Shown: positions 1,443-25,595 of the stretch, one piece after another
Layout of the letters: each line of letters starts with the position of its first letter
Numbering within the stretch: position 1 is the stretch's first letter
NCBI GenBank assembly: GCA_026874595.1
Contig: CM049308.1
Span: 53,579,624 to 53,643,623 of the forward strand
Origin: Sipunculus nudus
Taxonomy: Eukaryota; Annelida; Sipuncula; Golfingiida; Sipunculidae
Direction: 5' to 3'
DNA: 64,000 nucleotides
Notes under the pieces: generated by a model
Told to the model about the DNA's origin: nothing
The model's input: the letters and a program-made list of their open reading frames with translations, nothing else
The model's database searches: none
Made by a program: the position numbers and the translations under genes

Positions 1443-2044
1443 TTACTGCTCCGACAAAAGGTCTTCTAAGTCTTCCTCGTTGAAATCTGAAAAATAAAAA
1501 AGAGAAAATGTCACCATATATCTAATAGATTCTGTCTAAAACACCTTATTTACCCTTGACTAGATTTTTACATGACTAACAAATGACCGAGTATTATTAT
1601 CTCTGTGTTATGATCACTCAAAACTGTAACACATCTGGTCTGGTCTTATCATACAGTACTGTGCATGGTTGTCTTTATATTCGCGAAATTACATTTAGCA
1701 CTTGCCATTATCCCGTGGGTTTCCATTTACTCGCCATCCAGAGACTTTTAAAGGGTATTATTTCAACGCCAGGAGAACACAGACGGGACTTGCATTATTC
1801 ACAGGAATTGGGAAAACATCTATGACATTTATAATATCAGTGTTCGATTTAAAGAGAACATGAAATATGTGTAATTCTTTATAGATTTATTATCCAACTC
1901 TTGCCTTTAAACATTTTGTGTTTCACGCACTGTACAAAGGACTATTCACCCAAGCTGATTGGATGTCGTCTTCCCTCGCGAACATAAAGTCAACCACAGT
2001 ATATAAAACGGTTCACTTCTCCTAATCTCCTAGTGTAGGAATAC

Positions 2045-2135
<91 letters not shown>

Positions 2136-4241
2136 GAGCCTTTCTGTTTTAATTTTTATACATCTGTAACTTACCAATTAAGAACAAATTGTACTTTATT
2201 TATTACAGGCATTTTATGTAGAACAATTAAATACAACTTCTTGTTTCAATTCACTCGTCCCTCGTATCACAAAGAAATAAATTATGCATGCCTTACAGAG
2301 AATTTTTTTTTAGATTTTATATCCTTCTGCAGAATCAAATTTAATAATAAAAATACTACTCACCAAATCCCGAGTCGTCAAACTCAGGGACATCGTTATT
2401 TGTGATGAATGGGGCAGCGTCGAATTCATTGGAGTCCAGTTTGCCATCGGCTGTAAATGATCCAAAATACAATAAGGATGATCGTCTCTTCACTGCGATT
2501 CACATATATAAGACTTAATGGTTTTACAGTAAAGCGTAGATAAGTTAAAGTCACCTGAAGAAATCCCCTTGATGACCTTCATCTACACCAAACACTGAAG
2601 GTGTCAGTGTAATCATAAATATCATTCATGGGAGCTGTCGTCGTTCGTTCTAACATAGTTCGGTATTTCGTGAGACATGTTTATGTTTAGTTTATATGAG
2701 TTGGAGTATTACAAACAATGATTCTTAAGAATATCATTCTCTGCATTAGTACATTTTTATCTTTCTTTAGCGAATTCAAATTTGAACTTATAACTAGCTA
2801 TACAGAATGAAACAGGGTGGTTGTATGTTTGAATGGTTTATAATAAATAAAAAATCATATTTTACTAATTTTGCTACTAAAATTTTATTTAAACAACTTA
2901 TTTCCTTTTTTTTAAATTAGAATTTGTCACCTAAGGTGTGTCAAACCTACAGTTGTCATCGGCGAGGTCAAAGGCCGGAGCGCTTTTGTCCTTGTCTGAC
3001 TCGATGGCCTTAGCGAACTCCTCCAGACTGATGTGGCCGCTCTTGTCACTGTCGTACTCCGCGAAGTTGGCTGGGAATGGCTTGGAGTTCTGAAGATGGG
3101 ATTAAGTTTCAGTTGAGTGAGATTTAAATTGCAATAAAAGAACAATGTTGACATGGTTTGGAGTTCTGAAGGAAAATTACAATTGGTTCAATGACAGGAT
3201 GTGGAAAAATACGAGTATATGCTTAAAAAATTGAGGATTTAGAGGGGGCGCACCTTCTTTTTCGATTAAACAAAAAAATGGGAAATAGAATATTTTATGA
3301 TTTTATACCCCAAAAAAATGCCGGAATTTTAGTCTGGTGCCATTTTTATGTATAGTTCTTTTTGTCCTTATGTATGAAGTAAATTTGTTCTTGCAACACA
3401 GTTATTGCCTGTGCCTGGGTGTTAAGCCGTCCCTTCTCCCTTTTTAAAATACTGTGTCCGCCTCTGGATCGTGACATTACATTGCTAATTATAATTACTA
3501 CAAAAAACAGCCTTCAGTTCACCTGTGCCGCTGTGCGCTATTAATATAACAAAATTATATTTCGTTAATGGAAACACCTGTAGGGTAATATGTTAATGTT
3601 AAATGAAATGTTTAAAAGTTATGTCGTAAAGATCTTAATATATAAAGACTACAGAAAATTTCTTAATATCACATTTAAATAACTCATTGTTTTTAAAGTA
3701 TTGCATGAACTAGATTTTCATATGACAACCAAGTGACATACTGTTACTTAGGTGCTTAAAACAGCGAACCTTTTTTTTTATTTTTTAAATTAATTTTCCA
3801 ATTTTACAAAATCACATGAAAATGAGTGAGAAGTTCGAAAATATATATACCATCCAAAAGATCACGGTATAACCGGTGTGAAAAAATGTATACTTTATAG
3901 GGTCTGATATGAAGATAAACCACTTTTGGATTGATTTAAGGTATAGGGTTTTTTTGACGCAAAATGTTATTATTACATCGCAAACATGTTACCTGGAATT
4001 CAACATCTCTTTTGCCGACCCTGGAGCAGATTTTACCGCAGACTGGGCTGCAGAAGCCGGGCATGTGACACACCCTTCTGCAGGCAAAGGGACAAACGAT
4101 GGGAGCGACACGCCGGATGGCGCGACCCACCCGCCGGAAGAAGCGTCTACCACGGAAGCGCAACCTCCAAGCCTCGCTGTCGTCCACGTAAAGTGACGCC
4201 ACAAGCAGGACGGTCACCAGGCAAACTATGCTCAGCTTCAT
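1443..4241 (-). CDS. Gene A: secreted Arg-rich six-Cys peptide with EF-hand propiece
   Basis: Four coding exons: 4241-3993, 3089-2951, 2450-2364 and 1486-1443 (stop TAA), 172 residues in all. Splice phases are 0, 1, 1, and the same boundaries recur in genes B and C. Residues 1-24 are a signal peptide ending SEA. Residues 25-75 hold 14 Arg/Lys and no acidic residue, with six Cys at 50, 54, 58, 64, 68 and 72 (spacing 3-3-5-3-3). Gly76-Lys77-Arg78 is a typical amidation/dibasic processing site. The rest is strongly acidic, with two canonical EF-hand loops at about 96-107 (DSDKSGHISLEE) and 127-138 (DDNSDGKLDSNE), and a tail rich in Asp, Glu and Leu. The likely product is a secreted, amidated cationic antimicrobial-type peptide cleaved from a calcium-binding anionic propiece. 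I do not recognise the family. Antimicrobial action is inferred from composition. Confidence 0.85.
2051..2134. repeat. (TA)n then (CATA)n microsatellite in gene A intron
   Basis: About 50 bp of pure TA followed by CATACATA repeats, within the last intron of gene A. Confidence 0.9.
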
Positions 4242-4885
4242 TCTGGGAATGTTGAAGTATATACCGTTCAGTAGCAGATCTGAAATAAAGACAAACTTGA
4301 ACATAAGTATATCGCATTTAACAGAATTGAAAAACAAATATATTTGAAATATATTCAAATGGGGGTTTGCATGCTAGTGAACTAAACAATTACGGGCTGG
4401 TCTTTCCCCATGTTTCGTCTTCGCCTTTTCAAGTAAAGATTAAAATCCTTGGCGCTCCAATGCAGAATTATTTGCGCATAAGCATGTAAATATGCTTCAA
4501 AACCGTAGTATATATATGCCAATATATATCCCCAAAAAGACACTGGACTGAAGTACCTTTTATATTAGTTTAATCATGTAGACTTTATAATTCATCTGAA
4601 TAGCGGTTAAATCTGACTGACTTCATAAAAAGCGCGTTTTTTAATGATTATTTTCATGGTATTGAAAAGTTTGCTTATCGCATAACCAAAACAGGATATA
4701 ACTGGTGTGTTAACCCTTAAACAGATGTCAAGCCACTAATAATGCACTCTGCATTTGTCCGTTGATATAAATGAACAATACGTTTATATATTCCGACTGC
4801 ATGGCTACGATATATTACACGATATCTTTTTAACTTTTCCCCTGGGCGCAGTGGGCAGGTACATGATCACTCTGAAAGCATATAG

Positions 4886-7292
4886 CAGTGCTGCCATTTT
4901 ATACTTTTTTAAAAGTATTATACTTTTTTTTCTGAAAAGCTACTTTTTATACTTTTTTTATACTTTTTTCAGGTGTTAAATTTTTTTTATACTTTTTTTT
5001 AGCTCAGCTGACTATAAGTCATCAAATATAAAATTGGTACCTTAAATTTTGCCCACGTTTTTTTATTGTAAGAACATTTGATTTACTTTTCACAGTTGGT
5101 ATATATATAGATTTAATCTGTTAAATTCTGAAATATGAAAATAAAAGCTTAAAAATCATTCTAGTTATTGAAATTTTTCTGAGGCTCTAATGTGTTTACA
5201 TTTTGAACCTCCAGACCAGCCATGTCTGGTCCCTACAGCCTTGTCTGGGTAAATGTATTAGTGATGCAACACTGCTTTTACAAATGTAGAATCACATGTG
5301 GCAACCCTGCCCTGCCCCCCCCCCCCCAACCAGATATGTTGCATTACTAACTTTTTTTTTAACCGATTGCTGTTTTTGATCCAATGTATACAACTTTTCC
5401 AATCCTGAATCAAGTGTTATTTTCAGATATATATTATTTTGCAAATTTAAAAAATATATTTTAAGAAAAAATAAATACATCTGTGTTTCTATTAAAAACT
5501 GTTTTCATACTTCAGGACTTAATATCAAAACCACTCATCTGGTTTTCTTCATATTTACTATAAATATTCCTCTATATAATTCCTGTGTACATTCCAGAAA
5601 TTAAGTCTGTATTATATAATTTAAAAAAGTGAAGTTATGGGCCCAAACATAATGCACCTTGTAAAAAATCAGGAAATATATTTATTCACTTAACAAAAGA
5701 ATTGCTGATGCTAGAGACTTTTTTCAGGGATATTACTTCATTTAATCAAGATTCAATTGTATACCAAAATTATATCTGAATTTTGCAATATTTTTAAGTT
5801 ATTAGCATAAATATAAAATCAGTACCTTAAATTTTGGCCACGGCACATTTTTTCCCTGTAAATACTGTGTATTTCATTTTTCACAGCATGTACACATAAA
5901 GATTTAATCTGTTAAAATCTGAAATTTGAAAATAAAAGCTGCAAAATTAGGCTATAGTTATTGAATTTTTTTTTGGAGGCTCTTGTTGTATTCCCATACA
6001 TTTTCAAGCATTCCACTTTGGTCACTGTAGATCATTCAGTGCAGCTCTCTATGCTCCCCAGGTTGTTGTTATGTAATCCCATCACTTGGGCAAGCCCTTT
6101 TTCTTGTTGAGCTTGATCAGGCTGTTTGCAGTTAATACCACAGGGAGCCTTTCTCTCTCCCCCCCCCCCCCCCCCCACCCCATTCTGTTGACAGACCTGT
6201 ACTATAAACAAGATGAATCTTATAATTTCACATTTTATTCGGCTAGGAGCAGTTACAACAGAGACCGCTCCCCCCACCTACCCCTTCAATACACAGTATT
6301 AATAAACAAGAGGCAGCTTATAATTTTAATGTTAAATAAATTCTTTTTGTTGAGACTTGGAAAATTTTGATTTTTTAAAAGAAAAAAAGGTTCAGGAATT
6401 TAATTCTTATTTTCAAATTTGATAAAATATTAGGATTTAATGTAAGTGCTAACTGACAAGATTTAAGAAGATATTAATACTTTGTAGCATTTCATTCTTA
6501 TCTCTTAAAATTGGCCTAGGTGTGAATAACACTGTTAAATCAGGAATATTGGTCAAACTTTAGGATTGATTTATTACTAATATGGCCATATAATTAACTT
6601 TTGAAAACTTAATTCCCTTCACACACTATTTGTTTATGAAATGTAACTTTTAAATAACACTTACCGTAGGCCCATTTTTTCCCTTGGTGTATCACTAAAT
6701 GGTTTCAGGCCAAAGGTTTCATTTATTGTGCATATGCTTTAGCTCATGTCCATTATTCTATAATTTACAGAGTTTCATTTTAGCAGGGCCATTTTCTCTA
6801 AGCTTTCAAATGGTAATAAATATACATGAAAAACCAAAAGAAATAAAAATATTTTCAGTTACTAATATTTTCCAAAATTCAGCTGAGCGATGTGACCCAT
6901 GGGTCCCTTGTTTAACAAAATAGCATGGTGAGATTGGGCTACCCAGTGGTATATCTAAAGATTAAAAGAGTTAAAATGAGATCTGACAATGTGCTTTCCC
7001 AGTGTCTTTGCAGGAATGTGTGTTCCCTGTTGTGTGGAGTTTATGCTGAGCTGTTCATGGCTTACTGACAAAATTCCAGGTGCTGAAATGTCAGAAACTG
7101 GAGGCTCAACAAGAATAACTCCACACAACACTGTACACATAATTTCGAAAAAAAAAATCAAGGTAACAAATGCTTGCATATCAGGTAAGTTGTCGTGAAT
7201 TTATACTTTTTTTATACTTTTTTTAAACAATTTTGATACTTTTTTTGGTAACGAATGATACTTTTTTTTATAAATCTAGAGTGGCAGCACTG
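4886..7292. mobile_element. 2.4-kb hAT-like non-autonomous element in gene A intron 1
   Basis: Ends are CAGTGCTGCCA and its exact complement TGGCAGCACTG. They are flanked by a perfect 6-bp direct repeat, ATATAG, at 4880-4885 and 7293-7298. Both arms carry TATACTTTTTTT arrays. No transposase frame is visible. A 6-bp duplication with CA-starting termini fits the hAT6-type group (inference). Interior sequence from about 5640 to 5800 recurs inverted at about 62.0-62.2 kb, so the interior is a patchwork of older repeats. Confidence 0.75.
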
Positions 7293-8275
7293 ATATAGAA
7301 CTTCGCATATTGAGCCACCAAGCAATTAGTGACCATAAGCAGGCTAAGTTTCTTTTATTTTCTTAATGTTATAACAAATGCATATCATTGATAAATAAAT
7401 GTCTGCAGATTTGATTAAAAATAAAACTACCTCTATATTTCCATCTATTTAATGACTCACGGGGGTCTAAATACAAATATTCTATTTCACATATAAGTAG
7501 CAAATTGTAAAATGTCATGCTTTTTCATACAAGTTTAAAATAGGAGTAACTGAAAATGTTGTACCCACCCTAACTAAGAAGACATAAAAAAGGTATATTC
7601 TGAACAAATTAAATACTGTAACAGTTTGGAAGTGTGAATATCACGTGAAATCTGCTGGGTGAATTAACTAGTATTTGTACTGCTCCAATTAAATATAAAT
7701 GTCAATTTCGCTTCATTTTGTTCTTACGCGAACATATTAAACATTGAACATCTAATGCTGACTACACTTTTTCGTTAAGCGAAAGAGTCCGTTTGACCTA
7801 TCATATCACAGCGCATTGAAACATATGTATGATTGCGCTTTATAAATGAATAAATCATCATGATAAATAATTCATATAATTACAACTAAAATACAAATAT
7901 TTTGTTTGAGATGATTAATGAACCGCTAGAGAACCCCTTATTTGTTAAAAAAATTAATCTGTACTGGACAGAATATTTGGATAAAATCTCAAAATTGAAT
8001 GAGCAAGTTTTTTCATTCATTATTTTAAAATATTATACACCAACTGGATAAAGTTCCAGTTTGAAAAAGCCTGAGATTTACAAAAAAAAAAGTGAAAACT
8101 TTATTGTCAGCGTATAATGGATTATAAATAAATTAGTTAAATGCAAAATTGATCATCTATATTCAAACATTATAAATCCCATAACTGCGTAAAATTAGAG
8201 AAAATGAGTAAATAAAGAAAAGTGTCAAACAATTAAAACATTGATTGCCTAATGAAAGAAATTTGATTCACATAC

Positions 8276-8312
8276 CTTGAACTCTTCCTTTGTGTCCTGT
8301 GGGGCGGGTGTG
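8276..8312 (-). other. Gene A non-coding first exon (5' UTR)
   Basis: A short exon ending TTCAAG|GTATGTG at 8276. The 5' end (about 8312) is placed roughly 30 bp below the TATA box. It shares the GGGCGGG(G)TGTG block and the donor context with genes B and C. The next exon begins at 4279 after a TTTATTTCAG acceptor, and 4279-4242 is 5' UTR before the ATG. The intron is about 4.0 kb and contains a 2.4-kb transposon. Confidence 0.7.
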
Positions 8313-8337
8313 CTTAGATGAGGTTGACCTATGCCCG

Positions 8338-8424
8338 TTTTATAGCCTGTGCTGACCAACAGACCTGTCCATAGCCGGTCGGGGTTGATCAGTATCGCTG
8401 GACACGGTCAGAGCCTTCCGGGAA
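8338..8424 (-). promoter_or_regulatory. Gene A core promoter: TATA box plus TTCCGGGAA palindrome
   Basis: Read on the minus strand, TATAAAA lies at 8344-8338. The perfect palindrome TTCCGGGAA (STAT/GAS-type half-site spacing) lies at 8416-8424. The equivalent palindrome in genes B and C sits at the same 72-bp distance from the TATA box. Factor identity is inferred from the motif only. Confidence 0.65.
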
Positions 8425-8607
8425 ACTCATAGAAAGATCCTTTTGAAAACATAATAATGTTTATTGTTTATCAGACAATGATAGCTTGATGGACGTTAAG
8501 TTCTTATCTCATGTTATCGACACTGCGCGTGAAGACTTTGTCTTATATGTCCGGATATATCTGCATGTAAATCCTGTACCTGCTTGGATTAACAGAGGGA
8601 TGAGTAT

Positions 8608-8753
8608 TTGTTATCTGCATTCTGCGAATCGTGCGTGGGTTGTCATCAGCTCTGGAGCCCCGGGGATGCATATCAGAACAGGTCATCTGTCAGTCAAGTT
8701 TCTCGGTCCCTTTATATCCGGATTTCTCTCTCTCTCTCTCTCTCTCTCTTGAT
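8608..8753 (+). repeat. Dispersed CT-tailed repeat upstream of gene A
   Basis: Block CTCTGGAGCCCCGGG followed by (CT)n. Related copies lie upstream of gene C (25790-25938), three times at 20454-20607, 20701-20799 and 20870-20977, and degraded at 27365-27487. They share 'ATCAGCTCTG' and 'CCGGA' before the CT run. Confidence 0.7.
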
Positions 8754-8759
8754 TAAATA

Positions 8760-9066
8760 TTTGTGTGGGATGAAGTTATTTGAAGAAAACCGACGTTATG
8801 ATATGATTTGTAAAAAAAATTATACTAACAAGGAACATAGACCAGTGAAATAGCCTTTCTGATATATAAATATGTATGACTAAGCATATATCTGTATTTT
8901 TGTATGCATGTACTCAGCATTAGACGAATATTCCAGACACGGTAATACAATGACGAAAAGAATTTTATGTGAATATTGTTTAAAAATCAGCTAAGTATTT
9001 AGTGCTCTTAACTGAATACACTTTTAACATATTAGATATTGCAATTTTCATTTGTGCTAGATGGAA

Positions 9067-9144
<78 letters not shown>

Positions 9145-10331
9145 ATTAAGAGTTTTAAGTGTCCTTGGGGGTTTAGATTCAGCTATTCTGCTACTTTTTT
9201 ATTATTATTTACGTGATTTCTGACTTACTTTGGATACATTTTAATGAACTTTACAGGCACATGTCATTCTTTCTAAGAATGTTCTTACTACGCCTCTGTG
9301 ACAGATGTATGCACATATTACAAACATTTAAATATATACAAAACGAACATCGAGCAAAATCCTGTGTACCATGGTTTTCCTGCATCAAGCTCAAATCTTA
9401 AGGTTCAAGGGATTATGTTCAGTTAATAGAAGAAAAATATCTGAGTATAGGCCCATTTAAGGTAAAGAAATCTCCACTCAGTCATTCTCTAGAATCAATA
9501 AACTCTCTGCTTTACTCATATAGACTAGTAAGCCCCGCTGTTAAAGAAATTTTAAAATTGCCGGGTTTAAAAAAATTAGCCATATTATAGAATATTAATT
9601 ATAGTAAAAAATATCATTATCCAATAAAACTGTTTCACACGGAACTTGCGTAGATTGTTTTATTTAGGTTCAGAATTGAAGACACCTGCGCAAGTGCTGG
9701 CGGAAAATATAAAGACCGCAGAATTAGTCTAAACTGACACATTACGATGTCACTAGCATGGAGGACTCCTTAAAAGTCCGGTCAAAGCTATTATTTACAA
9801 ACCAAATTTCACTCCTCACTGAATTAAAGGTATTAACCAAGATAAGATTTATTTATTCGTTTTAACATTCTGAGGATAATTGTAATATTCTATTACTCTA
9901 GGGCAACGTGGCTCCCGCATTAAATTTTGTTTTAATTTGCAAATATATACAGACCATGATGAAGTTCGTCAATGTATTGTGGGTAATTTTTGTGATTAAA
10001 GTGCTATAGTATTAATTTAAATATACTCACTGTTTGCCTTCTTCTGAATTACAATCTACGTTATATTACATTATAATAATTATCATAATATTGATACATG
10101 TATATTATAATAACATTATCAATACAAGTATTATATAATATAATATTATATAATTTTTTGCTTATATTACAATAGGGAATACTTATTCTAATACACGTAT
10201 ATATATATTATCCCGCCGGATAGACACGGCTTGGTAACAGGATTCGTAAGACGTCCGCGAGCCCACAAACGAGTATTGCTGTTAGTTGCACTCTCGGAAT
10301 GTAAAATAAGGGCTGGGCATTAGTACTAATG

Positions 10332-10392
<61 letters not shown>

Positions 10393-11230
10393 TATATTTA
10401 TATATATTTTTATTGCCTCCGCCAGTAAGATATGCGTTAATTCGTGTGTCTGTGCATGTGTTTGTTCACTTCGTAACGCACACTATCACGAATGGAATCG
10501 CTTGAAATTTTTAGGGCCTTTTGGGAATTGTCCAGTTAATAATCGATTAGACTTTGTTGTAAATCCGGTACATGATCCGGTGCCAGGAGGAAGATTTACT
10601 AATGCACAGTCACTTGTGTTCGATTGAACCTGGGATTTTAGGCCGAATAAGTGAAAGGCCGAGGATTACATCGATTAGAATGCAGAATTTTAGTTTCTGT
10701 TGCAAACATTTTTCTGGGCGTCTCCCAAAAAATCATATTTCTTTAATGTTTACTTCCCTTTTAGTGTCGGCGGATCCGTGAGACGACTAATAAATGATAA
10801 AATAAAAAATAAACGGCCTAAAATGAATTATAACTCCAGGATGCATTTTAACAATTTTAACTGCAGGAATAACCAATGTAAATATAAAACTTATAAAAGA
10901 AATCATAACACATTTTAAAACACACCTTCGGGAAGAGAGTTAAAACATGTAATCACTTTGATTTATGCCAGTTTCTGTATGTCAGTTTCATAGCGTGTGT
11001 GGGTGTTCGGCGCCGACGTCAGTTGTGTGGAACTATATTAAGGCAATTATTTATCGGTAAGAAGGCGTCACTGTCCATGCAAAAGCAAAGACTGAGTCTA
11101 CATTCTTGTAACGACAAAATCTATAACCATCTTTCTTATAAGTCTTGCATCCTTTCGCACCTGCCTTATTTCCTTGTATAACTCTCACATAATGCTAAAA
11201 TAAAATTCAAGAATACGACCAAAATGCATG
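8760..11230. other. Intergenic A-B: microsatellites and old repeats
   Basis: Contains (TA)n at 9072-9139 and 10334-10390. At 10410-10700 is a dispersed repeat with GCCTCCGCCAGTAAGA, related to sequence near 13.3-13.6, 19.2 and 20.3 kb. Small open frames here have no recognisable content. Confidence 0.5.
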
Positions 11231-11238
11231 GAAAACAG

Positions 11239-11244
11239 TTTATT
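11239..11244 (-). terminator. Gene B poly(A) signal
   Basis: AATAAA on the minus strand in a context homologous to genes A and C (TGCATGGAAAACAG on the plus-strand side). It implies a 3' UTR of about 440 nt that includes the MITE at 11490-11656. Confidence 0.6.
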
Positions 11245-11656: not shown

Positions 11657-11677
11657 TATATATAACAATTAGTGTGT

Positions 11678-13972
11678 TCACTCTCCCGTCATCAAGTCTT
11701 CTAAGTCTTCATTTTCTGAAAATTACCAGAGATATGGTATCAGTGCAGTACTATAATGGCTTCGAATTAAAGCAGTTCACGGAGAAATGCACAATAGGCA
11801 CTAACATACTAAATTTAGCGATCCGGTACTGTTAACACAATATTTTCAATTATTATAACATAAAATGTTAACAGTAACGCTAACGAACGTTGCAAAACAA
11901 GAGCTGACCCCTTCCTAACCTGTATATTATAATGTATATATTGTATAGAAATATTGTGTTATATCAATTCTAAGAATAAAGATATTTTTTGTTTCCATAA
12001 AGTTGTTTCTTTGTAATGAACACAACATCCATTTAAGTTTACGAGGGTTAAAATACAAATGCATGACACAAGTCTCTCTTTCTTAGGAATAATAAAGAAA
12101 CAAGCTATTTTCTATTTTCTCACAGACTTGGTAGGTTTTCTATGAAATGTAAAATGATTATGCAACTCACCAATTCCGGAGTCGTCAAATTCGGGTACAT
12201 CTTTTTCGGTGATGAACGGGGCAGCATCCAGTTCCTTCTCGTCCAGTTTGCCATCAGCTATGATTGGTTCAAATCAGAATCAGAATCATGTTTTAATCAT
12301 TAAGATTTAATTGGCTTTTAATTCTATTAAATATAATGATTTTACAGCTAAACTGAGGAAGATATCACATATTGCATAATATATATCATCATTCACTAAA
12401 AATCGTTGAAGATTTTTGCAGAAGAATATCTCAAGAGGTGGTGGTCAAAAACAATATGAGTATATATATGGTTCATTGTACATGCTATATTTCTGAAGCC
12501 GTTCATTCGTATATATTTGTTAAGTGTTGCGTGAAATATGCTTATATCATTCATATGGTTTTAATACCCGGTGTTTAAAGTACGCAAGTTCAGCGCATGG
12601 ATTTTTCTTTTCCCTTACAAAAATAAATGTTCCTTAAAGTTAACATAAATAAACTAGATGGTTTTGTATTTGAATGACTAAATTTATCTGTAAATAAGTA
12701 TAAAAAATAATCAAGGAATTTCACAATTTCTCCAAACTGATTTCACCATTTACAATTTTAAAGGTAATTGAAGATGGGCCTTAAAGCTTACCATTGTCAT
12801 CGGCGATGTCGAAGGCCGGATTGCTGTTCTCCTTGTCTGACTCAATGGCCTTAGCGAACTCCTCCAGACTGATGTGGCCGCTCTTGTCACTGTCGTAGTC
12901 AGCGAAGTTGGCTGGGAATGGCTTGGAGTTCTGAAGATAAAAAAATATTTATGTGTAATAAATATATACTGTTAGACATGACATGGTATTGTTAACTGGA
13001 AATCTTTATGCTGAGGAATGCAAGCCTCCGTCATATGGGTGGTCTCTATTGTGGGATTCTCTAGAACATGTGTTTACATTCACTTATTTGGTTCATATTC
13101 CCTTCTTCCGTGTTTAAGTGAATGTACATTTGTGAATTTACTGAATCCAGATTATGTATCGGATCCACAAAAAAATCTAATCTATTATTCATTGGCCCAT
13201 TCCCGGTTGCGTGAGTTTATTGTGGAAACTAACACATTAAGACACACGACCAGCAATGAAAGCAATCCGGGATGGGGAAGGAAGAATCAATTTAGTGAAT
13301 AAGATTTTGGTGTTGATCTAGCATCTTCTCCGGATTCTGGAGCGTCATCAAGGAATATTTACAAATGTACGGTCACTTATGCTTGAGTGACACTGTGTAT
13401 ATGGGCGAAAAAATAGGAAGCGTATGCAAACATGATTCTTATGCGCCACGCAGGCCTGTCCACCTATTCAGGCTACAGTCGGGCGTCCAGAACTATGAAG
13501 TCCAGAAGTATGAACTTCATCAGGTAAAGGTTAAGTGGCCATCTGCAGCAACCCAAGACAGGGAACCCCTCATGGTGGAGGTTTGCATTCCTTGTAAAAT
13601 GTACATTTATAGATTATATATCAGATACCAGGACCTTAAATAATTGATCTATCCGGTCTTATAAACGTTACCTCAGAGGTTTAATAGTATAAACTTTCTT
13701 ATTTCAAAATGTTTAAAATTGAAAGTTACCTGGAAATCAACATCTCTTTTGCCGAGCCTTGAACAAAGTCTACCGCAAACAGTTCTGCAGAAGCCGTGAC
13801 ACACCCTTCTGCAGGCGAAGGGACAAACAATGTGACCCACACGCCGAAGGGCGCGACCAACCCGCCGGAAGAAGCGTCGGCCCCGGAAGCGTAACCTCCA
13901 AGCCTCGCTGTCGTCCACGTACAGCGACGCCACAAGCAGGACGGTCACCAGGCAAACTATGCTCAGCTTCAT
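11678..13972 (-). CDS. Gene B: secreted Arg-rich six-Cys peptide with EF-hand propiece
   Basis: Four coding exons: 13972-13730, 12930-12792, 12257-12171 and 11715-11678 (stop TGA), 168 residues. The signal peptide and Arg-rich segment (1-40) match gene A. The cysteine part has diverged and lost two residues, so the six Cys (50, 54, 58, 62, 66, 70) are all exactly four apart (C-x3-C five times). Gly74-Lys75-Arg76 is the processing site. EF loop 1 is DSDKSGHISLEE and loop 2 is DDNADGKLDEKE, both with all coordinating positions filled. The last exon is two codons shorter and ends LMTGE instead of LLSE(Q/E). This is the most divergent of the three paralogues, and its reading frame is fully open. 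A pogo-like MITE lies 22 bp past the stop codon. Confidence 0.85.
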
Positions 13973-15905: not shown

Positions 15906-15940
15906 TAGAAGCATTTTTACATGCTTGGGTTCAGAAATAT

Positions 15941-16001
<61 letters not shown>

Positions 16002-16274
16002 AAGCGAAATATCCCTGTGTTTTGCGCCATATGGGTAAAGTTTATTAAAAAAGTTGCATACATGTATGTGGCCACTAGCTATAAAAGATTACAAGATCAT
16101 TATTTACATCAATAATTATATCATTAAAAATAACATCATAAAAAATTATATAATTTTTGACTAGAACAAAAGAAAAGAAAATTAAAGAATAAATGAATAA
16201 ATGAATCAAAGAAAAACATCTACTGACGTTTTAAGAAGAGTTTCTGCCTAAATCAAGAAATTCGATCCACATAC

Positions 16275-16309
16275 CTTGCTCTCTCTAAGTCCTGCAGGGC
16301 GGGGTGTGT
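16275..16309 (-). other. Gene B non-coding first exon (5' UTR)
   Basis: Ends AGCAAG|GTATGTGG at 16275. The 5' end is estimated from the TATA distance. The following exon starts at 14008 after a CCTTTTCAG acceptor, and 14008-13973 is 5' UTR. The sequence matches the first exons of A and C, including GCAGGGCGGGGTGTGT. Confidence 0.7.
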
Positions 16310-16331
16310 CGGAACGGGGATGTCCTCGATC

Positions 16332-16420
16332 TTTTTATAGCCTCTGTGAACAAACACAACTCTCATTTCCCAGCCAGGGTCGTTCCATATCGAAGACCAT
16401 TACCAGGGACTTCCAAGGAA
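16332..16420 (-). promoter_or_regulatory. Gene B core promoter: TATA box plus TTCCAAGGAA palindrome
   Basis: TATAAAAA at 16339-16332 (minus strand). The palindrome TTCCAAGGAA at 16411-16420 is 72 bp above it. It overlaps a kappaB-like GGGACTTCC at 16406-16414, which is not conserved in A or C. Confidence 0.65.
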
Positions 16421-16555
16421 CCCAGACAAGAGGTATCAATAAAAAAAAAATATTATAAGAGTGTATTGTTTATCCTCAATGACAGCTTAATGCAGGATAC
16501 GCTTGTATTCTGTTATAGATAATCATATTACGTTTTTATACTAGTATGTATGTTA

Positions 16556-16609
<54 letters not shown>

Positions 16610-16895
16610 GTAAGACCTCGGTAAAGTATTCGTAATAATAATTTTTTTAATTACTATAATGATTACGATTCATTTTCTAAAACTTTATAATTACTTCCAT
16701 GCATTTTCTTCTTAAGATCCAGAGAGGACTAAAATTAATTGTCTCTTGATGTAAATATTCCAAATCTATGTGCAAATCCATAACAAATTACAATGAACGG
16801 TACAGTCTGTATCTTGACGTCAAAATGAAGACGAGACTTCGGTTACTCTGAATAAACTTCGAACGTTTATAATAACTTCACCGTCTGCAGCAAAT

Positions 16896-17417
16896 CTAAA
16901 CAAGAGCACAACAAATGTGAATAAAACACCTGTCGTGTATCTTGTTACCTCTGACCTCATTAGATATGTGTGAATTTTGATGAGAAGGTAATTCAGGTGA
17001 GAAACTCTCTTGGTATATATGTATAATAAGTTCATGAATATCCATAGGATTTTTGGTAAGTTACCAAGGTGCCTCCAAGGTGCGGTGACCTCTCACCTCA
17101 TTAAATATGCATGGATTTTGCTGGAAATCGAACTTAGGCAAGATATTTTTTATTGATTAATATTTTTGATGAGTTTTATCAAAATCCTTCATATTCTTCA
17201 TAATTTATCGCGGCGACGCCACAAAGTAGCCTAGTGAACCGTGACCTTATTAAATATGCGTGGATGTTGCCCATAATCGAACAAGGGCGAGATAATCTGT
17301 TGGTAAGTAGTTATGATGATCAAAGCCCCGGTAAATTATCGCATGCAGTGACACTAAAAGTTAACGGGCGGATGGACGGTGGGTGTTACTCTCGTCATAT
17401 GACGGGCGTATAAAAAG
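16896..17417. repeat. Dispersed repeat with internal tandem units (copy 1)
   Basis: Three imperfect units carry TGACCTCATTAGATATGTGTG, CTCATTAAATATGCATGG and CTTATTAAATATGCGTGG. The repeat ends with GACGGGCGTATAAAA. Copy 2 is at 30365-31041. Confidence 0.7.
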
Positions 17418-18020
17418 GACCCAATTCATTTCAATAAAAATTGTTGGATCGTAGAAATTAGGGCAAGAAAGAAGTCATTAGAGTTTGACGAGAATCATTT
17501 TTATTTTGGAGAAAAACACACGAAACAACAGGCAAACGGGGAGAATAAGGATTTATCTTGATACGCATAGTGAATCCAACGATCCGTCCAAACATTAAAA
17601 TTTTCTTCTTTAGATCTTATTTCGATCCCAAGGTCCCACAATTTTTTTCGAAACCTACCCAGTACTGTCGATGATATGGCTAGGACACACACAGATCGCA
17701 CAAATATGGCTGATCTCAAAGTCCCCTGCCACCAGTGGTGTTAATTTATCTCCAAGGGTGGGGGGGGGGGGGGGGGTAATCAAAGTTGGGAGCTAATCAA
17801 AGTTGGGAGCTTTCTATACACACATGCATATATATCTTATATAAGTATATATTTTGTGTATACATTTCAAATGTATTACAAGTAAGAATAATATTTAAAA
17901 AAAATAATGGATTACGTTTCCAGTATAGGAACAAGGTTTTGATATATACTATGTCATGTTATAAATGGAACCAAAGTGTATTATTCAAATTATCAATATA
18001 TTTCATTTGCAATATGTATA

Positions 18021-19015
18021 CAGTCGTGACTTGATAATCCGATACTAAATGAAATACCCTAATTTATGTCGGATTGCAAGGCTGTCGGATTGTCAAATTA
18101 AAAAAAATTGACGGAGGGTCAAGATACAATGTGACCTAAATGTTTGGAGGAGGATTTGTCAGTATTCATTAAATATTTTCTTATAATAAATAACGTATAT
18201 GATATTGTTATGATTTATGTGAATTAGAAAATACAACATCCGTCATGGAGTATTGTTTCATTTCTTATATACTTGTCTAAATATACAACGCTGGTAAAGA
18301 TAAACGACCAATGCAGATTCTTCCATTATGAGGCATGATTATATTTCTGAACAAACGTTAACTAAATGTATATAATAAATGAACCAGCGGTTGATCTACT
18401 GAACTCATGTACGTATAAAGAATGCAAGCATATGTCTGTTATCTGGTTCTTTTATTTTGGTTTTCACGGACTTTTCGACTTTTCTAAGCAGACCGCGGTC
18501 GGCATTAACGTCCCCTGCAGCGAAGCCCTGCTCCTCCATATACCGTTGCCCTGTTTCTAACGTTTTCCCCCCCAATCGTGTCTCTGAGAGTTTTTGGTTT
18601 AGGAGGATCATCTTCTCCCTCAGACTCGCCTCCGTCGTCTTTGACAATTGACACAACATCAGTGGCCGTCGGCATTGCTTCCGTGGGCTCTATGTTGTCA
18701 AATGCGAGGTATTCCTCCGCGATCACGTGGTCAGCTTTGTTGAGTGCCTGGACGACTTCGTTCTCCACCTCCGCGTGCTCTACACATGGAGAAGCTCATG
18801 TCCGCCACATTCGGATCCAAACTGACTTAATTAGTGAGACAAATTGACTCAGTAATTGGTTCTAGTGTACGGTTAGAACAAGACGCATCGCTGGATTTCA
18901 CGCCTAATTGATCAGGGTTCTGTGTGCACGAGCCCGACGACTGACATCAATGGACCATATACCGGTCGGATTGCAAGGTTTTCGGATTGTTAAGGGTCGG
19001 AATGTCAAGTCGCGA

Positions 19016-19018
<3 letters not shown>
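18021..19018 (-). pseudogene. Deleted Tigger/pogo-type transposon with transposase tail
   Basis: Flanked by TA. The left end CAGTCGTGACTTGA pairs with the right end (complement CAGTCGCGACTTGA), and both arms repeat 'TCGGATTG' words. Inside, on the minus strand at about 18768-18405, two overlapping open frames (break near 18.5-18.65 kb) look like the acidic C-terminal tail of a Tigger/Jerky-like transposase. The DDE catalytic core is absent, so the copy is non-autonomous. Confidence 0.65.
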
Positions 19019-19020
<2 letters not shown>

Positions 19021-19072
<52 letters not shown>

Positions 19073-19083
19073 TATATATATAT
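19021..19083. repeat. (TA)n microsatellite
   Basis: TA array directly abutting the right TA duplication of the Tigger-like element. Similar arrays occur at 9072-9139, 15942-15998, 16561-16606, 24761-24846, 25169-25252, 26124-26164, 26459-26513, 31996-32043, 36297-36353, 36810-36860, 47340-47391 and 49491-49532. Confidence 0.9.
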
Positions 19084-19336
19084 TTATATAACACTGACCA
19101 ACCCCACCTCTTGCTAAAATATAGGGGGTTGGGGGGTTACCCCTACCTCTGTATTGACGTCCCTGCCTGCAACCTTTATTGGCGGAGGTAATAAAGTAAT
19201 TTGTAAGCGTTCATCCCCGTCCTGTCTTTGTTCACAACATGCCTCATGCAGTAATGAACGAAATATCATGAAATTTCGGGAATGGGCCAAAGAAAATCAG
19301 TAAGATTTGGTATCGATTCGGCAGATATCATCAGGA

Positions 19337-20220
19337 ACTAGAATACGGGTAGTCGACAAGCGGCTACGTGTATCCGCCAAAATCAGAGTAGGAAGGGTGA
19401 AGTGAGGCATGGATTGAATGGCAAGGGGAAATAGAGTAAGATGTGTTACATATTAGCATGAAAGTCTGTCACGTAAACATGATTGTAGGTGGCTCCACCT
19501 GATTTTTGAAGGAGAAACTCTCGAAGATGTATACACATGCCAAATTTCAGGTGGATAAATCAAACCACTGCCAAGATATGAATGATTTTATCCCACAGCA
19601 GACAAACAGATGGATGCTGTGCAAAAATGGTTGCAGGTGGCGCCACCAGTTTCTTGTATGATAAAGAGCTATGTGAGATCCAAACACACGCAAAATTTCA
19701 GGGAGATATGTTAAACGAATCCAGAGATATTAGCATAGATGTCTGCAGCGTGAGCGTGGATGTATGTGGCGCAACATGTCATAAATTCAAGAAAGCTATC
19801 CAGGATGTATACGCATGCCGAATTTCAGGTGAATTAGTCAAACCACTGCAGAGATATGTGATTTTAACCCAAGGCAGACGAACAGATGGACGCTGTGCAA
19901 AAATGGTTGCAGATGGCGCCACCATTTTTTGTGTACGTTTTAAAGCTATCAAAGGGCTACATTTGTGCAAAGATTTTTTCCTGATTGGTCAAACGAGTCC
20001 GAATTTATGTGGGTTAATGTGTCAAAACAGACGCACAGATAGACACACTGGAGAGAGGAAAGGTCAGAGGTCAATGCCAAATGGTTAGGCACCAGTTCAC
20101 ATGTGTCCTGATAATTGGGTTAAGTTTCGGTAAAATCGGTCTAGTAGTCTCAGAGGAGTTCTCCGGAAACGAATACGGCGGCGGCGGCTGAACCCGGTAA
20201 AAAACATGGTATCCGCCATA
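19337..20220 (+). mobile_element. AACTAGA-type element, family 2, copy 1
   Basis: Starts ACTAGAATAC, then hairpin GTAGTCG-ACAAG-CGGCTAC, then TGTATCCGCCAA. The interior has about four units of roughly 140 bp, each with a GGTGGCGCCACC-like word (near 19485, 19632, 19764, 19908). The right end keeps GGTATCCGCC but has lost the terminal hairpin seen in copy 2. An open frame of 168 codons across the repeats is incidental. Confidence 0.65.
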
Positions 20221-20453
20221 ACAAACAAATATCCACAACTGTACAGTCACTTATGCATTAATGAATCTAGGAATATGGGGCGATTAAGTGAATGCAAACA
20301 CGGTTTTGGGGAACATCCCACATGGGGGGCACCCACATAGCGGAGGTTTGCATTCTTTAGAATGCAGATTTCTAGTTATTATAGAGATTTTTTATATAAC
20401 GATAATGATTTCTTTTTGAAGTAATCGGCTGAAGCCCTGAATCATATATTTGT

Positions 20454-20570
20454 TTGCCTGATCAGGGAGATGTGTATCTCTTATCTCAATTCAGTGAATC
20501 TGGTCTATCATCAGTTCTGGAGCCCCGGGTCGTATACCCAAAAACCATGTCATATCACTATACCCGGAGA

Positions 20571-20611
<41 letters not shown>

Positions 20612-20937
20612 TTTGCGTGGGTTTGATTCATCTTTAAGGGAGATGAAATAATGAAATTCTTCGTAAAAAATAGAAAAAAGAAACTATAACAAGGAAGTCA
20701 TGAAATGGCCTATCATCAGGTCTTTTGCCTCGGTCCGCATACCCAGAAACCATATCATGTCACTATATCCGGAGATCATTTTCTCTCTCTCTCTCTCATA
20801 TTTGATTCATTTTTAAAGAAGATGAAATAATGAAATTGTTCGTAAAAACTATAATAATAAAATTATCAAATGGCCTATCATCAGCTCTGTTTACCCAATA
20901 TCATGTCATGTCACTGTACCCTTTTTAAACCCGGAAA

Positions 20938-20977
<40 letters not shown>
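20454..20977 (+). repeat. Three tandem copies of the CT-tailed repeat
   Basis: Units at 20454-20607, 20701-20799 and 20870-20977 each read CTATCATCAG, then ATCATGTCA..CCGGA(A/G)ATCA and (CT)n, followed by GATGAAATAATGAAATT spacers. Spacing is about 200 bp. Confidence 0.75.
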
Positions 20978-20981
<4 letters not shown>

Positions 20982-21674
20982 GTTTGCGAGGGTTTACTTC
21001 ATTATTAGGGGATATAAATAAAAGAAAAATGTTCGTAACAAATTTGGAAACAAGAAACTTGTAAAAGGAAATGTACTCTCTCACATAACGTATAAGTAAA
21101 TATGTATATATACACGTATTTCATATCTTTCGGAAGTAAGGAACGTTTAACATTTGGTTTCTTGTTTTGAGTAAACATGTTGAATTTCAAGAACACCTCA
21201 ATATTCTTTTCATTGTATATAACATTGTATTTGTTGATTTTATTTTGTAAAATTATGCTATACTTTCTATCTGCGCTTATTTATTTCTGAAAAATTAGAA
21301 AAAAATTAAATATCCTCAGTTGTACAACAATCACTTCAACAACACTTCATCAAAGCTAAAATAAGTTAAGAATGAGTGATGCAAATTTATTAAAGTATAA
21401 CTACATTAATCAAAATAAACATTTCCAGAACAGTTAATGTATGTATTCGTTTTGATAAATTGTTTTCATAGTTTGTTAACACATATGTGTACGTGTGTTC
21501 TGCGCGGATGTTAATTCCATGGGGCTGTATGGAGACAACAAATCCAATATCTGTGCATGTCAAATCTTACATACGTTATTTCTCACTTGCTCTGACTGTT
21601 GTCTCCTTTCAATCTCACATAGCCCCCCAAAAAACCGCAAAGAATACATACCAACAAAATGCTGGGAAAACAAT

Positions 21675-21680
21675 TTTATT
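21675..21680 (-). terminator. Gene C poly(A) signal
   Basis: AATAAA on the minus strand about 295 bp after the stop codon, in the same context (GGAAAACAA, then TTTTTCTGGAAAC on the plus strand) as the 3' ends of A and B. Confidence 0.6.
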
Positions 21681-21973
21681 TTTTTTCTGGAAACAGCAGA
21701 AGGGACCCTGAGCATAGTTTAACCATGTCCAGTCACTGATATTTATTTTGTATATTGGATAAGCTGGAAGTCTTCTTTATCCTTAAATTCAAGTGTATAT
21801 TTATATAACAGGTGTAAAGAGAAAACTCTTAAACTGAAGGGAATAAACTTCTTTCCCCTACCCCCTGCTCGATATGATCAGTCTGTACAGAAACCTGTAG
21901 GTTTTATGTGAGAAACCATCATGGTTCTTCCCATTAATCTGTTGTGATCAACCACTTGTTACACTAAGTGTAT

Positions 21974-24331
21974 TTACTCTTCTGACAACAAGTCTTCTAA
22001 GTCCTCCTCGTTGAAATCTGAAAAAAAATATGAGAGAGATAATGTACGGATTGATTGGAGTACACACTAATTAACGTCGTTAACACTGATATAAAGATAC
22101 GGCACACGATGCCGCCCCTGCATTGGCAACTCGTGGTTTGATCACCTTGGGGGGTGCGGTCGAATGTGCCGAATCAGTGATTACTGCAACAGTTGGTAAA
22201 TACAATCTTTCAAGCATGTGCGGCTGATAATTTTTCGTTAAAAAAATAATATTCAAACTGATATAAAGTTTATACACGGAACTCGGCATAGATATATATA
22301 AATAATATACCTCTTATTTAAAAAACGAACATTTTGATATTTTCAAACGAAAATGATACCTTAAAACAATAAATGGTGGTACATCTATATATATATAATT
22401 AATCGAATGACTCGGTAAATGATCTGCATAATGTCAACAGTCACAAATTATAATACATAAATGATAACAATAATAACATTAAACAATGATGCATAAAAAG
22501 TTCACCTTTTCTTTATCAAAATACAATATCAATTTAATTTAATTCATATAAAAAAATGAATGGCTGGTTTTCAAACTTATACATCTGCAGCTGAACAACT
22601 GGTAAATTTTCATATCATATCCTTTTATGAAAACGATGCTTATTTATGTAAATAAAGGTCAAAATACTCTCAGATTTTGGAAAAATAAAGGATTTAAATT
22701 GAGGGCCCTCTTTTCAATAACTATGCACTTTAATATTTCTCTGCCGAAGTATATTTTCTAATGAAAATGAATGTATTGCTTACCAATTCCGGAGTCGTCT
22801 AATTCGGGTACATCGTTGTCTGTGATGAATGGGGCAGCGTCCAGTTCCTTCTCGTCCAGTTTGCCATCAGCTGTGGATGATTTAGAACAAACAGTAAGGA
22901 TCATGATAATTGCTAGAGACTGCAACTGAAATACTTGTTTCAGTCAACGTGGTAGAATGCCTAATAGGATTTAGATAATGTATAAGTCACCAGAAGAAGT
23001 ATCTTGCTGTAGAAGATTCAATAACAGTAAGCCTTCGCTGAATTAAGGTGTGAGGAGTTCACAAACAATATGTATCTTCTGGATATAGCCTAAGTATAGT
23101 AAGCCTCCCAGTATACTGAGACGGATACTGTGTCTATCTTAAGGAGAGTCATTTCATGCATTATGATAACGTTTGCTTCAAGACAGACAATACTAGAAAT
23201 TACGTACGTTATGTTTGTATTTATTGTTGAGAACCAGAACGGGATGTTAATGTCATAACGCTTAAACCGCAAGTACTACTTTTGGTACTATTTGCCTGTT
23301 TTAGTCATACAAAATTCAAAGTCTCTTTCCAGTTCGAATAATTCGTCAAAAGGGACACAGTATATTATGTCAAATCATTTGTTTATTTTAAAGTATTTTA
23401 AGAATAATTCACTTATTTGATTGAGAGTTTTCATTAAAGTAACGTTAATGTTGAAAACGTACAGTTGTCATCGGCGAGGTCGAAGGCCGGCGCGCTCTTG
23501 TCCTTGTCTGATTCGATGGCCTTAGCGAACTCCTCCAGGCTGATGTGGCCACTCTTGTCACTGTCGTACTCGGCGAAGTTGGCTGGGAATGGCTTGGAGT
23601 TCTGAAGACAGAAATAACTATCAGTTCAGTTAGAGTTCAAATACCATAAAAGAACAAAGTTGATATATTTTTGTATTTACAGCACAATATTACTTCGTTT
23701 ATTGTGAACACCAATGGGCAATATCACTTTATACAGTTAAACCAAGTAGTTTATATATAACCTCCTAGGTTAAACTAAATATTCCTAATATAAGGTATGT
23801 ACATATTTATGAAGTATATACGTTTTATGTTTCAGTGTCTTGGGCACATATATGTTGTAAATGAGGATCATATATTACGCATACACGTATATTATCACAT
23901 ATTTATAAGCAAAATACAATGAAAAACGATATAAGTGAATGTTGCACATGTGAGGTTTCTTTTTGTACACTTGCATTTAATATTTGACAGTTTCTAAGTT
24001 AGCTCTTAATGATGTCATATTACAATAATGTGTTTGTAAGTATCCATTAAATGATGACCACTCTTGTACAAAAATAAGTTACCTGGAATTCAACGTCTCT
24101 TTTGCCGACCCTGGAGCAGATTTTACCGCAGACTGGACTGCAGAAGCCGGGTAGGTGACACACCCTTCTACAGGCAAAGGGACAAAGAATGGGAGCCACT
24201 CGCCGGACGGCGCGACCCACCCGCCGGAAGAAGCGTCTGCCCCGGAAGCGCAATCTCCAAGCCTCGCTGTCGTCCACGTAAAGTGACGCCACAAGCAGGA
24301 CGGTCACCAGGCAAACTATGCTCAGCTTCAT
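21974..24331 (-). CDS. Gene C: secreted Arg-rich six-Cys peptide with EF-hand propiece
   Basis: Four coding exons: 24331-24083, 23601-23463, 22870-22784 and 22017-21974 (stop TAA), 172 residues. Exon 1 differs from gene A at only a few residues (for example Ile42 to Val, Val49 to Leu, Met60 to Leu) and keeps the 3-3-5-3-3 cysteine spacing and Gly-Lys-Arg. Exon 2 encodes the same 46 residues as gene A. Exon 3 is closer to gene B (DEKEL in place of DSNEF), so the exons have a mosaic history. Both EF-hand loops are complete. The gene has the same first-exon, TATA and splice architecture as A and B. Function is inferred as for gene A. Confidence 0.85.
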
Positions 24332-24757
24332 ACTTGGAATGTTGAAGTATATCGCGCACAAAATGGCCTGAAATAAAATATATATACATAATTTTCGGAT
24401 GGGTCTAAATAAATCTGCACTTTTTAAACCAAGACACGTTTCACACACAAACATGCTTAAAATATTTTGCAAAATGCTGCTCAATCAGAATAATACGTGC
24501 ATTCTGCACAAGGCTGTATCCGAATTAGCAGGATCCTCTAGTACCGGGCAATACTAATTTAGGCCTACACATGGCTACACATAGCTTTCGTACGTGTGCA
24601 CTGCCAGAGATGATTTTGGGTGCGTACCGAAATGTCTTAGGAGCGTTCACATAGGCTATCATATGGTTTAACCAATCGCGGGAAAAAACAATTAAAAATA
24701 GCGTCGAACAGCTTCAAATGCATTCTGTAAGTGAATGAGGTATTAAATAAATATATG

Positions 24758-24851
<94 letters not shown>

Positions 24852-25189
24852 TGTTGCTTAAAAAGCATTTTGCCAAGTGTATTTTACCTTATATACATTA
24901 CAATTCAATCACAACAATTATACAGGAATGATTATTTCAGTCAAATATCTGGTCAGTTACAAATTCTACAGTAGGAAACAATATTACATGCAACTACGGT
25001 ACATACTTTAAATTTATATAATTAAAATATTAAGTACCATACTGGAATAAATTCACCTGGTTATACATCAAGTGCACCAAAAAGGAAACTTTAAAGGTTC
25101 AAAATTATAAATATTAAAATTGATCTTTCTTACAATTATATTACATTATGTACATATGATTCATATTATATATATATGTGTGTTTATAT

Positions 25190-25255
<66 letters not shown>

Positions 25256-25378
25256 GAATCACGTTGCACGAAACTACGCATAGTATATAGTAAAACTGTC
25301 TGAGAAAATGTTATTCCTCTATTTGTATAATTATATAGCTCTGGTTTCATACCATAGAGCACGCTAGCGGTTGTTTAT

Positions 25379-25416
<38 letters not shown>

Positions 25417-25443
25417 CAAGGAGGTAAATTCTGATTCACATAC

Positions 25444-25484
25444 CTTACACTCTCTTTTTCTATATCTGTCTTGCAGGGCGGGGT
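25444..25484 (-). other. Gene C non-coding first exon (5' UTR)
   Basis: Ends TGTAAG|GTATGTG at 25444. The 5' end is estimated from the TATA distance. It joins an exon starting at 24367 after a TTATTTCAG acceptor. It is conserved with B around GCAGGGCGGGGTGTGT. Confidence 0.7.
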
Positions 25485-25505
25485 GTGTGGTGACAATCTT
25501 CGGCC

Positions 25506-25595
25506 TTTTTTATAGCCCATATTTACTGGCAGACCTGTTCACAGCCGGTCAGGGTCACTTCCTATCTTTGAGCTCGATCACAGCCTTCCACAGAA
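25506..25595 (-). promoter_or_regulatory. Gene C core promoter: TATA box plus TTCCACAGAA motif
   Basis: TATAAAAAA at 25514-25506 (minus strand), with TTC-N4-GAA (TTCCACAGAA on the plus strand) at 25586-25595, 72 bp above it as in A and B. The block AGCCGGTCAGGGT between them is shared with gene A. Confidence 0.65.

What the first reader, a model, noticed from the sequence alone, without database searches (positions are those of the whole stretch)
1443..25595. Tandem family of secreted cationic peptides fused to an EF-hand propiece
All three copies encode signal peptide, then a 49-51-residue peptide with about 14 basic and no acidic residues and six Cys, then Gly-Lys-Arg, then a propiece with roughly 28 acidic residues and two complete EF-hand loops. 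Cationic antimicrobial peptides with anionic propieces are known in marine invertebrates. A paired, fully canonical EF-hand as the propiece is an arrangement I do not recognise as a named family. A testable idea: calcium binding controls charge masking, folding or release of the peptide in hemocyte granules or mucus.
Basis: partly seen in the sequence, partly recalled or inferred. Interest (0 to 1): 0.9.

Follow-up and report, generated by a model that had tools for sequence, protein, structure and literature searches.

The report
Cysteine-ladder peptides with EF-hand propieces
An animal genome carries dozens of related genes for small secreted, often positively charged peptides, each made joined to a second part that is predicted to bind calcium and be cut off, a design seen before in a mussel antifungal peptide.

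Summary
Three intact genes on the minus strand each encode a signal peptide, a 49-51-residue peptide (14-15 Lys/Arg, no Asp/Glu, six Cys), Gly-Lys-Arg, and an acidic Cys-free propiece with two canonical EF-hand loops. Introns are diverged to chance level, exons 2 and 3 are 89-95% identical, and dN/dS is 0.12-0.19 (peptide) and 0.09-0.31 (EF part): both halves are selected. The architecture has a named precedent, mytimycin, whose mature peptide differs (10-14 Cys; PMC8004829). The window is a corner of a larger family: 78 EF-exon and 50 peptide-exon matches in this genome, 42 paired in order (some distant matches are probably unrelated). Across the family the linear segment before the Cys domain varies from Arg/Trp-rich to six uncharged residues, and the basic cutting site lies after the Cys domain in the window copies but before it in most C10-cluster members read. 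I read these as amidated effector peptides, antimicrobial in the window copies, made on an acidic, probably Ca-binding carrier. Activity, Ca binding and expression were not tested; the species is unknown.

The parts
3993..4241 (-). copy 1 exon 2: signal peptide, 51-residue mature peptide, GKR, DVEFQ
2951..3089 (-). copy 1 exon 3: EF loop 1 and first part of loop 2
   Evidence: Pfam
2364..2450 (-). copy 1 exon 4: rest of EF loop 2
1443..1486 (-). copy 1 exon 5: acidic C-terminal tail and stop
4242..4279 (-). copy 1, 5' untranslated part of exon 2 after an AG acceptor, so a separate 5' exon is implied (not located)
   Evidence: sequence; aligned among the copies
13730..13972 (-). copy 2 exon 2: signal peptide, 49-residue mature peptide, GKR
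12792..12930 (-). copy 2 exon 3 (EF loop 1)
12171..12257 (-). copy 2 exon 4 (EF loop 2)
11678..11715 (-). copy 2 exon 5, six bases shorter at its start
24083..24331 (-). copy 3 exon 2: signal peptide, 51-residue mature peptide, GKR
23463..23601 (-). copy 3 exon 3 (EF loop 1)
22784..22870 (-). copy 3 exon 4 (EF loop 2)
21974..22017 (-). copy 3 exon 5

Best explanation
These are precursors of secreted effector peptides. SHOWN from sequence: signal peptide, cationic part, GKR and EF-hand propiece lie in order in one conserved four-coding-exon gene model, under purifying selection in three copies and repeated across a large family. INFERRED: after entry into the ER the six Cys pair as nested rungs of an antiparallel hairpin; a furin/PC-type protease cuts at Gly-Lys-Arg; the Gly becomes a C-terminal amide; the acidic EF-hand pair, with calcium bound, accompanies the peptide as a carrier or intramolecular chaperone that keeps it inactive and helps pack it into granules. 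The window peptides (amphipathic-helix arm plus Cys domain, 14-15 basic and no acidic residues) then act on microbial membranes. In most members read of the C10 cluster the basic site lies before the Cys domain, so there the linear segment is the likely product and the Cys domain travels with the propiece.
For: Gene models, charges, exon conservation against introns at chance identity, dN/dS 0.12-0.19 (mature) and 0.09-0.31 (EF region). Of 78 EF-exon matches in the genome, 42 have a peptide-exon match upstream on the same strand within 6 kb, against 0 on the opposite strand and 1 downstream (the longest gap, 5,015 bases, may be a wrong pairing). The Cys framework is shared by 26 aligned peptide exons, most of them picked with that framework in mind. 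Canonical loop 1 in 19 of 20 fetched stretches. The linear arm of copy 1 has helical moment 0.74 (shuffle mean 0.32, P 0.0065); its stretch RRFFRRVGRAIRRVAPIV, chosen by eye, 1.0 (0.36, P 0.0005). Mytimycin, the EF-hand AMP precursor I found in print, is antifungal and mainly expressed in hemocytes (PMC8004829). Prodomains of marine AMPs are said to act as chaperones or charge neutralisers (PMC10608444, section on biosynthesis).
Against: No expression, protein or activity data. Some relatives would release short uncharged peptides (WLTISF, WISVNF before GKR), unlike membrane-active peptides. Of the other linear segments tested, L047 and L018 show no significant moment and L055 only a strand-like one (P 0.0125). 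Fold not settled: two AlphaFold2 runs were poor (mean pLDDT 58.1 and 57.4), one giving helices and one strands in the Cys domain. Ca binding rests on loop residues alone; loop 2 was located in 13 of 19 relatives. Signal peptide judged by hydropathy only. Exon 2 of each copy also runs on into its intron to a stop, so a form without the EF part cannot be excluded.
Confidence: 0.55

Rival explanations
1. The propiece is only an acidic charge mask, as in other anionic AMP propieces; the EF-hand fold is a historical accident and calcium plays no part.
For: Propiece 28-31 acidic of 92-94 residues against 14-15 basic in the peptide; EF-exon charge tracks the charge of the linear segment, Spearman -0.48, P 0.037, n 19.
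Against: Loop 1 stays canonical in members whose released segment is neutral or acidic (L048, L051, L052, L053, L057), though loop 2 was located only in L051 of these; EF region under purifying selection; the correlation is not corrected for kinship.
Confidence: 0.25
2. The family is a set of signalling (neuropeptide- or pheromone-like) precursors with a carrier domain, comparable to vasopressin with neurophysin; the window's cationic copies are one branch.
For: Short amidatable peptides such as WISVNF-GKR and WLTISF-GKR, and a two-Cys segment in L049; [quoted passage not shown]
Against: Window peptides are strongly cationic and amphipathic; clusters with very variable segments fit defence libraries better (inference).
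Confidence: 0.2
3. Peptide exon and EF exons belong to separate transcripts and the fusion is a modelling artefact.
For: No transcript was available; exon 2 of each copy runs on into its intron to a stop.
Against: Same order, strand and splice phases in three window copies with introns at chance identity, and 42 of 78 EF-exon matches paired in order against 0 and 1 in two controls.
Confidence: 0.04
4. These are true mytimycins (members of that homologous family) with a reduced Cys set.
For: Same architecture and an implied separate 5' exon (PMC8004829).
Against: Six Cys in an x3-spaced framework instead of 10 conserved backbone Cys; the authors report no similar Cys array in other bivalves. 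No mytimycin sequence was available to align.
Confidence: 0.1

Closest known systems
Mytimycins (Mytilida; PMC8004829)
   Same: Signal peptide, cationic Cys-rich mature peptide, dibasic site, anionic C-terminal extension with an EF-hand; non-coding first exon; many variants, some with in-frame stops.
   Different: 10-14 Cys in other arrays; reported as an EF-hand motif in 75 residues, here two complete loops in 92-94 residues; reported as restricted to Mytilida; no moving cleavage site or very variable linear segment described in the sections I read.
Tachyplesins/polyphemusins (beta-hairpin AMPs with amidated C-terminus; PMC4410394, PMC10608444, passages)
   Same: Cationic, C-terminal amidation; relative L072 holds a C-x3-C-x4-C-x3-C run (that tachyplesin has this spacing is recalled, not from a call).
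   Different: Window peptides have six Cys, a helical arm and an EF-hand propiece; fold not established here; L072 has a fifth Cys.
BRICHOS-domain precursors of polychaete beta-hairpin AMPs (arenicins, capitellacin; PMC10608444)
   Same: A folded protein domain as prodomain of a short Cys-bridged AMP, thought to be chaperone-like.
   Different: Here the prodomain is an EF-hand pair, C-terminal to the peptide.
Snail gene with putative neuropeptides and EF-hand region (Bogdanov 1998; reference title only)
   Same: Peptides and an EF-hand region in one gene.
   Different: Described as neuropeptides of giant interneurons; no sequence compared.

Membership tests
Mytimycin | Precursor order: signal peptide, Cys-rich cationic peptide, dibasic site, acidic EF-hand extension | tested here: met
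   against PMC8004829
Mytimycin | 10 conserved backbone Cys in the mature peptide | tested here: not met
   6 Cys in each of three copies
Mytimycin | Sequence homology to a known mytimycin | not testable with these tools
   no mytimycin sequence in the collections on hand
Mytimycin | Occurs in Mytilida | not testable with these tools
   genome unnamed; contigs of 79-98 Mb in 1.43 Gb hint at about 18 chromosomes, which as I recall does not fit Mytilus
EF-hand proteins | Two 12-residue loops with ligands at positions 1, 3, 5, 12 and Gly at 6 | tested here: met
EF-hand proteins | Binds calcium | not testable with these tools
   needs protein
Beta-hairpin AMPs (tachyplesin-like) | Disulfide-laddered beta-hairpin fold | tested here: inconclusive
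   AlphaFold2 pLDDT 58 and 57 with conflicting folds; best PDB profile hits only E 0.36 (Ole e 6) and 0.45
Beta-hairpin AMPs (tachyplesin-like) | Amidation signal after the mature peptide | tested here: met
   GKR directly after the peptide in all three copies; amidation itself not tested
Beta-hairpin AMPs (tachyplesin-like) | Two disulfides, 17-18 residues | tested here: not met
   six Cys, 49-51 residues against PMC4410394

The most novel reading that the evidence does not exclude
A calcium-binding EF-hand pair serves as the constant carrier of a genome-wide, highly variable peptide library of dozens of genes. Duplication changes the payload from Arg/Trp-rich killers to short uncharged amides, and the cutting site moves, so that the same six-Cys domain is part of the effector in one branch and part of the carrier in another. 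It would be a Ca-dependent counterpart of neurophysin or BRICHOS that serves defence and perhaps signalling.
Probability: 0.35. Interest if true: 0.75.

Novelty: new variant of a known kind. Interest (0 to 1): 0.58.

Why it matters
The EF-hand in mussel mytimycin precursors is an unexplained oddity; PMC8004829 calls its functional meaning unknown. A second set of such precursors, with another Cys framework and many paralogs, makes the question testable: which features of the propiece stay constant while the payload changes? It also offers a natural library of amidatable peptides, a number of them Arg/Trp-rich.

Tried and rejected
A pattern search of the genome for a start codon followed by GKR-like letters was too loose to use: 7,297 forward and 7,430 reverse matches. 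Placing the genome by the abalone-lysin and mollusc-haemocyanin models found nothing, but the controls rang nowhere either, so this says little. PDB sequence searches gave ordinary EF-hand proteins for the precursor and chance-level hits for the peptide. No Pfam family reached its cut-off for the peptide exon in 26 members scanned (best E 0.056). NCBIfam gave only two EF-hand look-alikes far below cut-off. Text searches with peptide letters found 0 papers; figures and supplements are not searched by that tool. Searches for EF-hand plus antimicrobial or peptide precursors; for beta-hairpin precursors; for the snail gene: (nothing useful beyond the oyster paper that cites it). The AlphaFold models were too weak for a fold search, so none was made. 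Rows left out of alignment A1: a truncated peptide exon (L018), exons with in-frame stops (L013/L032, L022), one without a donor by my rule (L050), a low-complexity false hit (L028), and exons fetched later (L058-L067). Exon ends in A1 were taken at the first GT of a set form; those of L051 and L055 may be misplaced. Positive selection was looked for and not seen: no pooled dN/dS of the linear segment exceeds 1 in seven groups, and in the window's own group it is low, 0.19. Of five EF exons without a peptide match that I sampled, four had an upstream signal-peptide exon with a Cys ladder (L068 and L069 six Cys, L070 four, L072 five) and one did not within about 1.4 kb (L071); splice sites of these five were not modelled.

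Full report
What is there. On the minus strand of the window lie three genes of the same design. Each has four coding exons with conserved splice phases; exon 2 begins with 36-38 untranslated bases after an AG acceptor, so a separate 5' exon must exist, but I did not locate it. The spliced products are 172, 168 and 172 residues: a hydrophobic signal peptide ending ...DDSEA, the mature part W...RV or W...RL, GKR, and an acidic tail. The mature part has 14, 15 and 14 Lys/Arg, no Asp/Glu and six Cys in 51, 49 and 51 residues. The propiece has 28, 29 and 31 acidic residues, no Cys, and two canonical EF loops, the second split by an intron. Neither the Cys framework nor the EF loop is expected by chance in 64 kb.

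Are these real genes? Yes, by internal evidence. Between copies the introns are no more alike than reversed controls (0.39-0.54 against 0.44-0.48), while exons 2 and 3 are 89-95% identical; exon 4 is 79-93% and the short exon 5 71-86%. dN/dS is 0.12-0.19 in the mature part and 0.09-0.31 in the EF region, and signal-peptide dN is zero in all three pairs. The two halves are conserved together. A fourth, broken copy of the peptide exon with two TGA codons lies about 3 kb beyond the left end of the window. Against this: no transcript was available, and exon 2 of each copy runs on into its intron to a stop.

The larger family. A search of the window's own 1.43-Gb genome with the precursor gave 105 matches, which I sorted into 78 EF-exon stretches, 24 peptide-exon stretches and three exon-4 stretches; the tool calls such counts lower bounds, and the most distant EF matches are probably ordinary EF-hand genes. 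Two peptide-exon queries gave 50 distinct places, the weakest of them near chance (merged). Forty-two of the 78 EF exons have a peptide exon upstream on the same strand within 6 kb, 35 of them without a stop in either stretch; the controls give 0 (opposite strand) and 1 (downstream). One cluster, C10:22.13-23.02 Mb, holds 37 of the 78 and 33 of the 42; others lie on C11, C8, C3 and C2 and elsewhere on C10. I read 20 stretches of 5-9 kb: 17 show the six-Cys peptide exon and 19 a canonical EF loop 1. A loop-2 exon was located in 13 of those 19. Of five EF exons with no peptide match, four had an upstream signal-peptide exon with a Cys ladder, so the true family may exceed the paired count.

What varies and what does not. 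In 26 aligned peptide exons the six Cys and their x3 spacing hold throughout, with the caution that most rows were picked with that framework in mind. Between signal peptide and Cys domain lies a segment that ranges from 25 residues with +10 charge, through Arg/Trp-rich sequences, to six uncharged residues. In the window copies and their C8 and C10:22.36 relatives GKR follows the Cys domain, and in the C11 members a plain KR does; in most members read of the C10 cluster GKR, GRR or another basic site precedes it. The predicted product therefore differs: linear arm plus Cys domain in the window, linear arm alone in most of the cluster. In seven short members the Cys domain is the most constrained part (pooled dN/dS 0.04, with saturated dS). 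The linear part is freer in two Trp-rich groups (0.64 and 0.79) but conserved in the window's own group (0.19), and nowhere above 1. The variability is thus mainly between groups and by insertion or deletion.

How it probably works. Shown: gene structure, charge layout, selection and family structure. Inferred: cleavage at GKR, amidation of the preceding residue, nested disulfides, Ca binding, carrier function and antimicrobial action. The window's linear arm is amphipathic as a helix (P 0.0065 for the whole arm). Pure charge masking is not enough: EF loop 1 is canonical also in five members whose released segment is neutral or acidic, although the loop-2 exon was located in only one of those five. 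Charge is not irrelevant either, since EF-exon charge falls as that of the linear segment rises (Spearman -0.48, P 0.037, n 19, kinship not corrected). Two structure predictions were poor and disagreed on helix or strand, though both put one element on either side of the turn in the Cys domain. The best PDB profile hit, pollen allergen Ole e 6, is at chance level (E 0.36).

What is known. Mytimycin is the named precedent: in PMC8004829 (introduction, section 2.9, discussion, figure legends and passages read) the precursor has a 23-residue signal peptide, a 54-residue peptide with 12 Cys and a 75-residue extension with an EF-hand after a dibasic site. It is antifungal, mainly expressed in hemocytes, and the EF-hand's meaning is called unknown. 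A figure legend in PMC7653742 (passages) lists an EF-hand among the precursor parts of six mussel AMP families that include mytimycins. Here the Cys framework is different and there are two full loops. I could not align the two families because no mytimycin sequence is held. PMC10608444 (its section 3 and passages) and PMC4410394 (passages) supply the AMP-prodomain and beta-hairpin background. Other papers seen in passages only: PMC11359391, PMC5549309, PMC13070813, PMC5673964, PMC8398477, PMC7148315. My searches found no report of this Cys framework with an EF-hand; subscription papers and figures are outside that library.

Verdict. Observation confirmed. Interpretation right in outline but not without precedent. 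The real interest is the size of the family, its variable payload and the moving cleavage site around a constant EF-hand part.

Noticed in passing
41880-44096 (-): Mab-21-type open reading frame (PF03281, then PF20266 in two pieces) interrupted by one in-frame stop codon.
   Followed up: partly
53809-54312 (-): Remnant resembling transposase family tnp2 (PF02992, just below its cut-off).
   Followed up: partly
L013/L032 (G000:C3:53576539-53576787, about 3 kb left of the window): Fourth copy of the peptide exon with two TGA codons, apparently a pseudogene.
   Followed up: partly
G000:C10:22.849-22.866 Mb and 22.877-22.894 Mb: Pairs of peptide and EF exons with equal or nearly equal scores spaced about 27.6 kb apart: probably a recent segmental duplication inside the family cluster.
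   Followed up: no
window 3150-3175 (-): A second TTCAGAACTCCAAACCA acceptor-like stretch just upstream of exon 3 of copy 1, perhaps a partial exon duplication.
   Followed up: no
window signal-peptide codons of the three copies: Synonymous divergence in the signal peptide (0 to 0.12) is lower than in the mature part (0.26 to 0.52), on few sites; gene conversion or constraint at the RNA level are possible.
   Followed up: no
L072, frame starting at base 115: A relative on C2 with RWCCWVFCVRGRCFLICG: five Cys, four of them in x3-x4-x3 spacing, like horseshoe-crab beta-hairpin peptides as I recall them.
   Followed up: partly
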